Origin: Leptotrichia wadei
Lineage (GTDB): Bacteria; Fusobacteriota; Fusobacteriia; Fusobacteriales; Leptotrichiaceae
DNA: 64,000 bases
Assembly: GCF_007990545.2 (NCBI RefSeq)
Contig: NZ_AP019829.2
Span: forward strand, 1,550,001-1,614,000
Direction: 5' to 3'
The position numbers and the translations under genes are program-made. The notes beneath the pieces were generated by a model that did no database searches, was not told where the DNA came from, and was given only the letters and a program-made list of their open reading frames with translations. Below, one piece after another: positions 18,767 through 58,674 of the stretch (its first letter is position 1; each line of letters begins with the position of its first letter).

Positions 18767-19018
18767 TTACAAAATTTCCGTATATTTCAAATGCTCCTTC
18801 AAAGCCTCAACATAAACTTTCCCATAAACACTAAGTTTGGTATTTTTCTGCATTATAATTCCAACTTTCATATACTCGTCAACTTCCAGCGGTCTTGCAA
18901 TAATATTTTCTCCATTTAATTCCTTACTGATTATCCCAGTACTCACAGTATATCCGTTAAGCCCGACTGCTAAATTAAACAAAGTCGCTCTATCTCTAAC
19001 TTTTATATTTTTATCCCT
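18767..19018 (-). CDS. LysR-family regulator, 3' exon
   Basis: The last 83 codons of a LysR regulator whose 5' exon is at 20811-21473. It holds the end of the effector-binding domain (VRDRATLFNLAVGLNGYTVS, ending KEHLKYTEIL). The exon starts AGG GAT AAA; joined to the upstream exon after GAT it gives ID-RDKNIKV in frame. Without splicing this part lacks its own start: the open frame extends back into the mobile element only by chance. Joined, the two exons give 304 residues, the normal LysR length. Confidence 0.85.
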   Translation of the reverse strand, partial: RDKNIKVRDRATLFNLAVGLNGYTVSTGIISKELNGENIIARPLEVDEYMKVGIIMQKNTKLSVYGKVYVEALKEHLKYTEIL

Positions 19019-19160
19019 CTGAACCTCCCACTTCTTGCGTCGCAGGGTTCTTGGGTAGTAGTTGCTTTTTTTAGCCAACTAAATTTACCAAGCTATCCCC
19101 ATAGTTCCTACGGTTCATATATTCTTATTTAAGCACTTATTTCTAATATCCTTAGTCCTT
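19019..19160 (-). ncRNA. predicted omega-RNA (reRNA) scaffold at element right end
   Basis: The stretch from the tnpB 3' end to the element boundary contains CCGTAG-GAA-CTATGG, then GGGATAGCTTGG and CAACTACTACCC, like the right ends that form TnpB guide-RNA scaffolds in IS605/IS1341 elements. The guide would be the flanking exon sequence starting AGGGATAAAAATATAAAAGT. The 5' limit is not determined. This is inferred from family knowledge. Confidence 0.6.
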
Positions 19161-20231
19161 CTTTTAATATGTTTTTTGCTGCATTTATATCCCTATTATG
19201 TACAGCTCCACAGAATGTACAAGTCCATTCTCTTACGCTTAAATTCTTTACTTTTTCGTTCTTATATCCACAACAGTTACATATTTGACTACTTGCAAAA
19301 AACTTATCTACTCTTACTATTGTTCTTCCATACCACTTCGCTTTATATTCCAGTATTCTACAAAATTCACTCCATGATACATCTAGTATATTTCTTGCTA
19401 ATTTATGGTTTCTACCATATTTTTTACTTGTAAATCTTCCATACAAATAATATCATATTTTCTTATTAGCTCTGTCGATAATTTCTGCAAAAAGTCTTTT
19501 CTTTGATTTGTTACTTTTTCATAGCATTTTGCCACTTTTATTCTAGCCTTATTTCTATTTGAACTGCCCTTTGGTTTTCGTGACAGTTCTCTTTGACATA
19601 AAGCTAATTTTTTCAAAGATTTCTGTAAATATTTTGGATTTTCTATTAAGGTTTCATCACTGGTAATCGCAAAGTCCTTTATACCTAAATCTATTCCAAC
19701 ATTCTTATTTGTGCTCTCTAGTTTTTTTACTTCTACATCTGTACAACATAGAGACACATAATATTTTCCACTAGGTGCTTGTGTTATTGTTGCATTTATT
19801 ATTCTTCCTTGTGGCTTCATCTTATCTCTTATTTTTAGTTTTCCTAACTTAGGTACTTTTATCCATTTACCTAAAAACTCTATATTATTATTAGTATAAC
19901 TAGTTCTGTATGATTTTCTATTATCTTTCTTAGATTTAAACTTTGGATAACCCTTTCCACTAAAAAAGTTCTTATAGGCTACATCTAAATCTTTTAAAGA
20001 ATTTTGTAAAGAAAATTTATCTACATCTTTTAACCATTTATTTTTTTCTTTTAAAACTGTTAGCGCTTTACTACACTCACTATATGACATAGATTTTTTC
20101 TCTTTGTTATATAAGTCTTGTTTTAAACCTAAAAAATGATTATAGACGTATCTTACACAACCAAAAGCACAATTTAACTTTTCTATTTGAGTTTTAGTTG
20201 GATAAAATCTGAACTTGTATGCTTTTTCCAT
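19129..20231 (-). pseudogene. tnpB: TnpB RNA-guided nuclease, frameshifted
   Basis: The reading starts at 20231 (GGAGGTG 9 nt upstream) and encodes a TnpB protein of the IS605/IS1341 family: N-terminal domain, then RuvC-I Asp181 in GIDLGIKD and RuvC-II Glu265 in [10 protein letters not shown]. At about 19411 one base seems missing, and the frame stops at 19398. The next frame continues with the normal sequence ([16 protein letters not shown]), a four-cysteine zinc finger (CNCCGYKN and CTFCG) and RuvC-III Asp in [10 protein letters not shown]. All catalytic residues remain but in two frames, so the nuclease is probably inactive. A sequencing error in this spot cannot be excluded. Confidence 0.88.
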
Positions 20232-20244
20232 TTGATTTCACCTC

Positions 20245-20291
20245 CATTTACTTATACCTAAGTATAATATTTTTTATACTGTAAGTAAATG
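20245..20291 (-). other. hairpin just before the tnpB ribosome-binding site
   Basis: CATTTACTTA and TAAGTAAATG form a perfect 10-bp stem, with an inner AGTATA/TATACT stem. It ends one base before the tnpB GGAGG. It could be a peripheral ribozyme helix, or could limit tnpB translation in read-through transcripts. Confidence 0.55.
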
Positions 20292-20309
20292 AAAAAGTAA
20301 AATTTTTCT

Positions 20310-20810
20310 AAATATATGAACCTAAAAACCGACTTAGTCGTTTTAGAGGTTGTCGTTCACATAAGTACGCTACCACTTATGCAGTTCTCTTATGAACTTC
20401 TTAATATTTCTATTAAGCACAGACTATATCTTATCCCACAGCTCTACCTGTTTGGGTCTACCCACTTCCACGAAGCTTTTCGTGTACTTCCCTCAGGAGG
20501 AATAGTCGTTGAACCTTACCTTGCGGTCTTGGCTGCTGATTGCCCATTATCTTAACACTTAGGGTTTAACCTTATGTCATCTAGTATATTTTTTCTGCTT
20601 TCGCAACGTTCACACTTGCCTCTCTCCTTAATTTGTTAAGGTGGAGTTGCTATGTTGTAGTTATACTAGCTTTAGGGGTTTCCAGCAATTCGAGCAGTAT
20701 TGGGTAACTTCTTTTAAGTTGCTACCTCTACATACATATTTCTATATATGCTGACTATACTTAATGGTCTAACTCACTTCTTACGTCACAAGTGTGCGAC
20801 CATATTTTTA
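20310..20810 (-). ncRNA. group I self-splicing intron ribozyme
   Basis: Conserved core elements occur in order on the minus strand: P (AATTGCTGGAAACCCC, 20675-20690), Q (AATCAGCAGCCAAG, 20528-20541), R (GTTCAACGACTA, 20503-20514), S (AAGATATAGTCTGTGC, 20417-20432). P4 pairs TTGCTGG with TCAGCAG, a covariation from the usual GCGG/CCGC. P7 pairs GACTA in R with TAGTC in S. A P5-like 8-bp helix joins 20662-20669 with 20581-20588. The 5' exon ends in U (TTGAT), and GTCG at intron positions 11-14 can pair as guide. The exact 3' limit of the folded core is uncertain. Confidence 0.88.
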
Positions 20811-21473
20811 ATCAATCGTACTAAGTATTTCTTCCGAAAAATAAAACGAATTGTAATCCCCTTGCTCAAACGATAAATATGGATATTCCTTCAAGTCTTC
20901 AAGGCTAATACTTTCCTTTTTTGCCAAAGGATGATTAAAACTAATAAAAACATGCGGCTTTGCAGTAAATAATTCAATAAATTTCAGATTATTTCTTTTT
21001 ATCATTTTCTCAATCACAGTTTTATTCGCTCCCGAAGTATACAAAATCCCAATTTCACTTTTTCTTTTGCTCACATCTTCAATAATTTCATTAGTCTGAG
21101 TTTCCCTAAGCGTAAAATCGTACTTATTTTCCCCAAACTTCTTAATCACATCCACAAAAGCATTTACTGCAAACGAATAATGCTGTGCAGACACTGAAAA
21201 ATGTCGAGTTATCTTATTTCCTTTCTTATACTCTTTCTCCAATAAATCTGTCTGTTCTAAAACCTGCCTTGCATACCCTAAAAATCTATCTCCCTCAAGA
21301 GAAACAATCACTCCCTTATTTGTTCTGTTAAAAATTGATATATTCATTTCATCTTCCAATTCTTTTATAGCCTTAGTCAGTGCTGGTTGAGAAACAAAAA
21401 GCTCTTTTGCAGCATCACTCAATGTCCCTTTTTCAGCGACTGTAACTACATACTTTAATTGTTGTAATGTCAT
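20811..21473 (-). CDS. LysR-family transcriptional regulator, 5' exon
   Basis: The first 221 codons of a LysR regulator: winged helix-turn-helix (residues about 1-60; FVSQPALTKAIKELEDEMN) and most of the effector domain. The ATG is preceded by AAAGGGG. Without intron removal, translation meets TAA, the first three bases of the intron, after residue 221. With splicing the product is 304 residues. The overall type resembles CysR/MetR-like sulfur regulators of Gram-positive bacteria, which would fit the metE palindrome, but this assignment is tentative. Confidence 0.87.
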
Positions 21474-58555: not shown

Positions 58556-58593
58556 ATTGTTTCCTCCTCGTTATTTGATATTTTTAATCTTCT

Positions 58594-58674
58594 TCAATAT
58601 GCCCTCACATACATAATATAAGGAATAAGCTCTACAGCCAAACATACCTTTACAATCTTTATTTCAATATCCAT
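58594..58674 (-). other. 26-codon ORF in the rpmJ-rpsM gap
   Basis: ATG at 58674 to TGA at 58594 encodes 26 residues (MDIEIKIVKVCLAVELIPYI and six more). AAAGG lies about 16 nt upstream, too far for a good site. The gap may instead fold as an S4- or S13-responsive leader, as in the E. coli alpha operon. No T run or strong hairpin was found. Confidence 0.25.

What the first reader, a model, noticed from the sequence alone, without database searches (positions are those of the whole stretch)
19019..20810. IStron (group I intron plus TnpB element) inside a LysR gene of a probable Leptotrichia
Seen: P, Q, R, S elements in order on the minus strand, P4 with compensatory changes (TTGCTGG with TCAGCAG), P7 (GACTA/TAGTC), an 8-bp P5-like helix, a tnpB gene downstream, and TTGAT at the 5' boundary. 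Known: IStrons such as CdISt1 insert after TTGAT in clostridia and splice out of mRNA. Inferred: this is a working RNA-level rescue of a regulator gene in a fusobacterium, outside the best-described hosts.
Basis: partly seen in the sequence, partly recalled or inferred. Interest (0 to 1): 0.92.

Follow-up and report, generated by a model that had tools for sequence, protein, structure and literature searches.

The report
Self-splicing transposon in a regulator gene
A small jumping gene that carries a self-splicing RNA intron sits inside a bacterial regulator gene and very probably removes itself from the messenger RNA; the kind is already known in this group of bacteria, but relatives carry it in dozens of genes, including single copies of genes thought to be vital.

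Summary
Window 20810-19019 (minus) is a full-length IStron: a group I ribozyme (RF00028, 72.3 bits), tnpB and an IS200/IS605-type right end, inserted after TTGAT in a LysR gene. Eight copies in three genomes share both ends. Of 13 genus genomes 11 carry the LysR gene uninterrupted; in one the site equals the joined flanks over 80 bases.

Corrections: (1) the kind is published; Tourasse et al. 2014 list LbISt1 in Leptotrichia buccalis. (2) tnpB is frameshifted and no other copy of this type was found in the genome, so the element is probably immobile but still spliceable. (3) P4 hardly varies; six other helices covary.

Survey: 80 related introns in 9 of 33 family genomes, 34 in one. 67 of 77 resolved copies lie in sense in a frame of 100 codons or more that stays open once the flanks are joined; the same measure gives 0 of 18 for intron-free IS605-type elements of the window's genome. 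The only topA found in G006 (same element type) and the only dnaB in G002 are split. Splicing is inferred; no RNA data were available.

The parts
20811..21473 (-). LysR gene, 5' exon (ATG at 21473; 221 codons, ends ...ATT GAT)
   Evidence: relatives uninterrupted
20811..20815 (-). Target TTGAT: insertion site and predicted 5' splice site
   Evidence: Same in 8 of 8 copies of this type
19019..20810 (-). The IStron, 1792 bases, from TAAAAAT to GGTTCAG
   Evidence: Ends from 8 copies and an empty site in L218
20751..20757 (-). Internal guide sequence TAGTCAG, pairs with TTGAT|TA (U.G pair at the splice site) to make P1
   Evidence: Fold; goes with the target
20400..20755 (-). Group I ribozyme core (RF00028 match)
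   Evidence: 72.3 bits, E 6.5e-18
20682..20687 (-). P4 5' strand TGCTGG (partner 20539-20534 TCAGCA)
20503..20507 (-). P7 5' strand GACTA (partner 20426-20422 TAGTC)
19398..20231 (-). tnpB, first 277 codons up to the frameshift (Pfam HTH_OrfB_IS605, OrfB_IS605)
19129..19446 (-). tnpB, C-terminal part (zinc ribbon and last RuvC aspartate by my reading) in another frame
19048..19094 (-). Probable core of the right-end (omega) RNA region; 45-72 bases 81-87% alike at 20 intron-free IS605-type places of the same genome
19019..19050 (-). Right-end hairpin GAACC...GGTTC and terminal TTCAG with the last G (omegaG)
18767..19018 (-). LysR gene, 3' exon (83 codons and stop); its first bases would be the TnpB guide (inference)

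Best explanation
A group A IStron of the LbISt1 type (IS200/IS605) inserted after TTGAT in a LysR gene on the coding strand. In the transcript the intron's guide sequence UAGUCAG pairs with the 5' exon UUGAU; guanosine attacks after that U, the freed exon attacks after the terminal G of GGTTCAG, and the exons are joined to give the same mRNA as an uninserted gene (304-aa LysR). Unspliced mRNA stops at the first intron codon (TAA) and gives a 221-aa LysR without the end of its effector domain. The DNA part is probably dead in this copy: no tnpA is in the element and tnpB is frameshifted, so it persists because the host gene depends on its ribozyme. Shown: ends, empty site, ribozyme fold and covariation, guide-target match, exon conservation, broken tnpB. 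Inferred: splicing in cells, immobility, the truncated product, the reason for persistence.
For: RF00028 72.3 bits. Same ends in 8 of 8 copies. Empty site identical to the joined flanks, 80 of 80 bases, in L218. Helix covariation in 28 rows. Guide and target go together: 8 of 8 copies of this type and 6 of 6 tnpB-less introns at TTGAT carry TAGTC; 62 of 62 of the second type and the one tnpB-less intron at TTTAT carry TAGTA (two of the 6 read by eye, because the script's search range missed them). The other seven copies of this type (six 92-93% identical in G006, one 83% in G001) each lie sense in a frame that stays open when the flanks are joined; one of them splits the only topA found in G006, model positions 1-224 and 231-623. 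LysR exons differ from relatives mostly at synonymous codons, e.g. G006 25 synonymous against 4 not, G003 90 against 10.
Against: No RNA data. The fast-filter Rfam scan missed the intron. tnpB is shortened in 5 of 8 copies of this type, so decay is under way. The insertion appears young (occupied in the window's genome only, of 12 with the gene), and a dead insertion of recent date would look alike at the exon level.
Confidence: 0.88

Rival explanations
1. A dead insertion: the IStron has lost splicing and the LysR gene is a recent pseudogene giving a truncated 221-aa protein.
For: tnpB is frameshifted; 5 of 8 copies of this type have a shortened tnpB; a LysR gene may be dispensable; the F. 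nucleatum genome paper predicts only one of its five copies to be fully functional (passage of PMC1924603).
Against: The scored helices, the guide sequence and the terminal G are intact. The 3' exon shows 1 synonymous and no other codon change against G004, and 4 and none against G012. A 92.5% identical copy splits the only topA found in G006. By a test of 32 pairs in five helices only 1 of 80 introns is damaged, and it lies where its failure costs the last two residues of a gene.
Confidence: 0.08
2. The element leaves at the DNA level (TnpA acting in trans) and so restores the gene in some cells, without RNA splicing.
For: TnpA genes exist elsewhere in the genome (5 matches over the cut-off in G000, one of them a broken fragment), and precise excision would restore the empty site.
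Against: It would not explain the conserved, covarying ribozyme, the matched guide, or assembled genomes whose only topA or dnaB carries the insertion. Intron-free IS605-type elements in the same genome do not sit in started sense frames of 100 codons or more.
Confidence: 0.02
3. The intron acts as a regulated switch for LysR, splicing only under certain conditions, so that the full regulator and a truncated form are both made.
For: The insertion puts a stop directly at the boundary; other copies divide an apparent start codon or lie between a ribosome-binding site and an ATG (read).
Against: No riboswitch family was matched in the Rfam scans (a novel ligand domain was not looked for). TTGAT falls in this phase in 102 of 129 coding occurrences in the window anyway, so the in-frame stop is no proof of selection.
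Confidence: 0.1

Closest known systems
LbISt1 of Leptotrichia buccalis (Tourasse et al. 2014, PMC4227781, Table 1 in section 14 seen)
   Different: Another host gene (a lipoyl-domain enzyme gene in G001); 17% divergence; tnpB frame shortened there too (311 against 369 open codons). The published LbISt1 sequence itself was not compared
CdISt1 of Clostridioides difficile
   Same: TTGAT target, TCAG end, group IA2 intron, ORF B of IS605 type (PMC4227781, sections seen); C. difficile contigs share the 21-base P7-P9 sequence
   Different: CdISt1 can carry ORF A; its splicing is reported (stated in PMC1924603, passage), that of this element is not
FnISt1 and FnISt2 of Fusobacterium nucleatum
   Same: Phylum, group A; the second IStron type found here (TTTAT target, TnpB of about 415 aa) may correspond to FnISt2 (not tested)
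   Different: The FnISt sequences were not compared here
ISDra2 / IS8301 (no intron)
   Same: TTGAT target, right-end RNA, TnpB nuclease (PMC8612924, abstract and passages seen)
   Different: No group I intron, so no means of leaving an mRNA

Membership tests
Group A IStron | Group I intron with catalytic core | tested here: met
   RF00028 72.3 bits, cut-off 50; covariation
Group A IStron | Inserted after TTGAT, ATTAT or TTTAT | tested here: met
   TTGAT in 8 of 8 copies
Group A IStron | 3' end TCAG, no target duplication | tested here: met
   GGTTCAG in 8 of 8; empty site without duplication
Group A IStron | IS200/IS605 ORF B downstream of the intron, after a GAACGA-like motif | tested here: met
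   Pfam OrfB_IS605 and HTH_OrfB_IS605; GTGAACGA from 20360; the frame is broken
Group A IStron | Splices in vivo | not testable with these tools
   No RNA data
Group A IStron | Able to transpose | tested here: inconclusive
   No tnpA ORF in the element, tnpB frameshifted, no second copy of this type found in the genome; TnpA genes elsewhere in the genome
Group I intron class IA2 | P7.1/P7.2 and extended P9 | tested here: inconclusive
   Complementary stretches between the P7 strands and after P9 are visible but were not scored
Homing-endonuclease group I intron | Homing endonuclease gene in the intron | tested here: not met
   Minus-strand ORFs of 100 aa or more inside the element are parts of TnpB (Pfam run on the first part only)

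The most novel reading that the evidence does not exclude
In this genus splicing is so dependable that IStrons have become near-neutral passengers of genes at large: 34 introns in one genome, in the only topA found there and (in another species) the only dnaB, three apparent start codons divided as AT^G so that translation can start only after splicing, and one gene (cobK) with three introns. The fit rests on one shared word: the base that differs between the two target pentamers is matched in the ribozyme's guide, so the site chosen for the DNA jump is also the splice site. Once in a gene, the intron is locked in by the host's need for it, while tnpB may decay; intergenic copies are rare among those found.
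Probability: 0.5. Interest if true: 0.6.

Novelty: new member of a known kind. Interest (0 to 1): 0.4.

Why it matters
The element itself adds a clean case to a known family. What matters more is the natural experiment around it: in one genome, elements with and without the intron can be compared, and only those with the intron are found inside started sense frames. Insertions in single topA and dnaB genes would, if those genes are essential there, imply efficient splicing in living cells and make it directly testable. The guide and target that change together show how a ribozyme and a transposon can come to share one site.

Tried and rejected
Whole-window Rfam at gathering threshold gave no intron hit, nor did the same setting on 11 loci; small stretches in E-value mode did. 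Idea that orientation follows the lagging-strand template: 70 of 74 copies are co-oriented with replication (origin taken as the dnaA place, terminus assumed opposite; the 3 resolved G022 copies left out), but this is not clearly more than expected from sense insertion plus gene orientation (p = 0.056 against 87% leading coding bases in the window). The intron-free IS605-type places are 19 of 20 co-oriented, which agrees with the known mechanism (PMC8612924, passages) but may also reflect their asymmetric target. Not claimed. Idea that an in-frame stop at the boundary is selected (discussed in PMC4227781): for TTGAT the observed 13 of 14 in phase 0 does not differ from the background 102 of 129 (p = 0.33), because TGA in one frame excludes that phase. 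For TTTAT the phases are 33/18/7 (phase 2/0/1) in 58 copies against a background of 67/102/54 (p = 4e-5), which I cannot explain. First counts of genes hit used unequal measures for introns and intron-free elements; recounted alike. Phage and plasmid searches (top 10 of 184 phage records seen) gave one near full-length relative, in a Clostridioides phage at 71%, and an intron-free F. vincentii relative. The other five families are below their cut-offs and dismissed. Paper searches: IStron (40 of 43 listed), TnpB with group I intron, group I intron with lagging strand template, Leptotrichia with group I intron, TnpB/intron/splicing/transposon (20 of 31 listed), IS605 strand terms, start codon (8 of 15 listed). 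A 2024 study of splicing against guide-RNA making in clostridial IStrons is known to me from recall only; it is not in the listings.

Full report
WHAT IS THERE. On the minus strand the window holds a LysR gene cut in two: 21473-20811 (221 codons) and 19018-18767 (83 codons and a stop). Between them lie 1792 bases. Compared with seven other full-length copies (six in G006, 92-93% identical; one in G001, 83%), both ends agree: TTGAT|TAAAAAT at the 5' side and GGTTCAG| at the 3' side, with unrelated flanks.

EMPTY SITE. The joined flanks code for 304 aa without a stop. A search of 13 genus genomes finds an uninterrupted relative in 11, at 95-99% identity over at least 303 residues, none in G008 at that threshold, and the two halves in the window's genome. 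In L218 (G006) the 40 bases on either side of the junction are identical to the joined flanks. In three others the pentamer reads TTGAC (L215, L221, L223); not all 11 sites were printed. Codon differences to six relatives are mostly synonymous in both exons. The LysR substrate domain (PF03466) matches across the junction.

THE RIBOZYME. RF00028 matches 20755-20400 minus with 72.3 bits. I collected 128 intron cores (the window, 80 family copies and 47 of 54 contig stretches, mostly Firmicutes, that share a 21-base P7-P9 sequence), reduced them to 32 representatives and used 28 (dropped: L066 and L109 with an unaligned 5' part, L098 with Ns, G002_477497 with a deletion). Over 44 pairs in eight helices 96% of 1231 cells pair; shuffles give 78% on average and 81% at most; 23 pairs change on both sides. 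P3, P5, the 8-bp P5 extension, P6, P8 and P9 exceed each of 500 shuffles; P4 and P7 hardly vary and say nothing. P8 is the weakest (81% paired). The shuffles do not correct for relatedness.

GUIDE AND TARGET. The fold of the 5' end pairs the exon TTGAT and the first two intron bases with TAGTCAG at 20757-20751, with a U.G pair at the splice site. In the family the third target base and its partner go together: TTGAT with TAGTC in 8 of 8 copies of this type and 6 of 6 tnpB-less introns at TTGAT; TTTAT with TAGTA in 62 of 62 copies of a second type and in 1 tnpB-less intron (two of the 6 read by eye; one of the 62 reads TTTATT at the boundary). Among 49 contig rows, 32 show TTGAT with TAGTCAG and 3 TTTAT with TAGTAAG; the other 14 were not resolved by the script.

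THE TRANSPOSON PART. tnpB follows the intron but is split into two frames; three siblings show 369 open codons. It is intact by that measure in 3 of 8 copies of this type, while 53 of 62 copies of the second type have at least 416 open codons. No tnpA ORF lies in the element; TnpA genes occur elsewhere in the genome. No second copy of this type was found in the genome (40 of 201 first-look candidates were scored). The right end shares 45-72 bases at 81-87% identity with 20 intron-free IS605-type places of the same genome, which fits the core of a TnpB guide RNA (inference). The bases after the 3' boundary would be the guide, and the empty LysR site behind TTGAT its target, as shown for ISDra2 (PMC8612924, passages).

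SURVEY OF THE FAMILY. A 21-base pattern with up to 2 mismatches finds 80 introns in 9 of 33 family genomes: 34 in G006, 17 in G002, 8 in the window's genome, 6 in G012, 5 each in G003 and G022, 3 in G004, 1 each in G001 and G008; more diverged introns would be missed. The highest number per strain in the 2014 survey was 24, in C. difficile (PMC4227781, section 14). Ends were set for 77 of 80 (two reset by hand): 8 of the present type, 62 of a second type (TTTAT target, about 1.9 kb, TnpB of about 415 aa) and 7 tnpB-less introns of 0.52-0.65 kb. With flanks joined, 67 of 77 lie in sense in a frame with a start codon before the junction and at least 100 codons; counted from stop to stop it is 70. 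The ten others lie between genes, just before a start codon, or in short frames. In none of the 77 is there an antisense frame of 100 codons or more that is longer than the sense frame. Background in the window, same stop-to-stop measure: of leading-strand TTTAT sites 187 of 293 sense and 40 antisense, of lagging-strand ones 32 of 423 sense and 287 antisense; TTGAT 99 of 129 and 17, and 19 of 103 and 72. So sense insertion is expected to be common if only the leading orientation is used; the lack of antisense cases is still unlikely (about 1e-5). Of 19 joined stretches tested with Pfam each matched a domain and in 14 the match runs across the junction, among them LysR, topoisomerase, DnaB, RuvB, MutL, DprA, QueA and MTHFR.

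SINGLE GENES. TIGR01051 finds in G006 only the two halves of one topA (positions 1-224 and 231-623, plus a C-terminal piece in the same frame), split by the present element type. TIGR00665 finds in G002 one dnaB split at 310/311 by the second type, and otherwise one weak partial match. The only gmk match over the cut-off in G006 has its apparent start codon divided AT^G by an insertion; the same reading holds for G002 674217 and G022 1535932, and in G002 2185215 the insertion lies between a GGAGG and the ATG (read). That topA, dnaB and gmk are essential is general knowledge, not tested here.

CONTROL. Of 20 intron-free IS605-type places in the window's genome, 18 had both ends. None lies in a started sense frame of 100 codons or more; one lies antisense in a 267-codon frame. 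From stop to stop two (L199, L210) do lie in long sense frames, but with no start codon before the junction, that is, upstream of a gene. Of 8 introns in that genome 7 lie in started sense frames (Fisher p = 1.2e-5; from stop to stop 7 of 8 against 2 of 18, p = 4e-4). The two groups have different targets (TTTAAC or TTTTAAC-like for most intron-free ones), so the control is not perfect. Of the 80 introns one (G002 477497) fails a test of 32 pairs in five helices; it sits two residues before the end of its gene.

WHAT IS KNOWN. IStrons in Firmicutes and Fusobacteria, the group A marks (TTGAT, ATTAT or TTTAT; TCAG; IS200/IS605), and LbISt1 in L. buccalis are in Tourasse et al. 2014 (PMC4227781: abstract, sections 14-16 and passages seen). 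F. nucleatum IStrons are in PMC1924603 (passages seen). So the kind, and probably a near sibling, are published. That paper states that no separate intron or IS parts of IStrons were found. Here a F. vincentii record carries the tnpB and right-end part (query 446-1765, 90.3% identical) without the intron (no RF00028 match) and with other ends; it is nearer to ours than the G001 copy (81% over that part). Whether it is loss, gain or exchange is open.

VERDICT. A real, correctly placed IStron, probably spliced, with a broken tnpB; a new member of a known kind. The surroundings raise the interest somewhat. Names for G-handle genomes were not given by the tools; 'Leptotrichia' rests on recall and on a phylum mark.

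Noticed in passing
L049:1494-3002 (G000), L161 (G002), L187 (G003): A CbiJ/CobK gene (PF02571 across both junctions, G000) carries two tnpB-less group I introns, each after TTGAT, in three genomes; in G002 a third insertion (second IStron type) splits its last part. RF00028 scores for the G000 pair are 45.8 and 44.7 bits, below the cut-off of 50.
   Followed up: partly
L228:2501-3818: Fusobacterium vincentii SB055: the IStron's tnpB and right-end part, 90% identical, without the intron and with different ends.
   Followed up: partly
L119-L194, 77 copies: The first base of the 3' exon is never C (A 36, T 21, G 20), and position -6 of second-type insertions is mostly T (43 of 62).
   Followed up: no
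L127 (G006 449551), L167 (G002 674217), L178 (G022 1535932): Insertions that divide an apparent start codon AT^G, so that it exists only after splicing.
   Followed up: partly
window 19060-19119 minus; L228:3745-3853: Weak matches of the Enterococcus sRNA family Ref70 (RF02841; 21.4 and 25 bits, cut-off 115) on the right end of the elements; Ref70 may itself be a TnpB guide RNA (guess).
   Followed up: no
window 58590-58655 minus: S4-Fusobacteriales ribosomal protein leader (RF03133, 64.8 bits).
   Followed up: no
L201 (G000:1217291): The only intron-free IS605-type copy of the 18 lying antisense in a long frame (267 codons), near the expected replication terminus.
   Followed up: no
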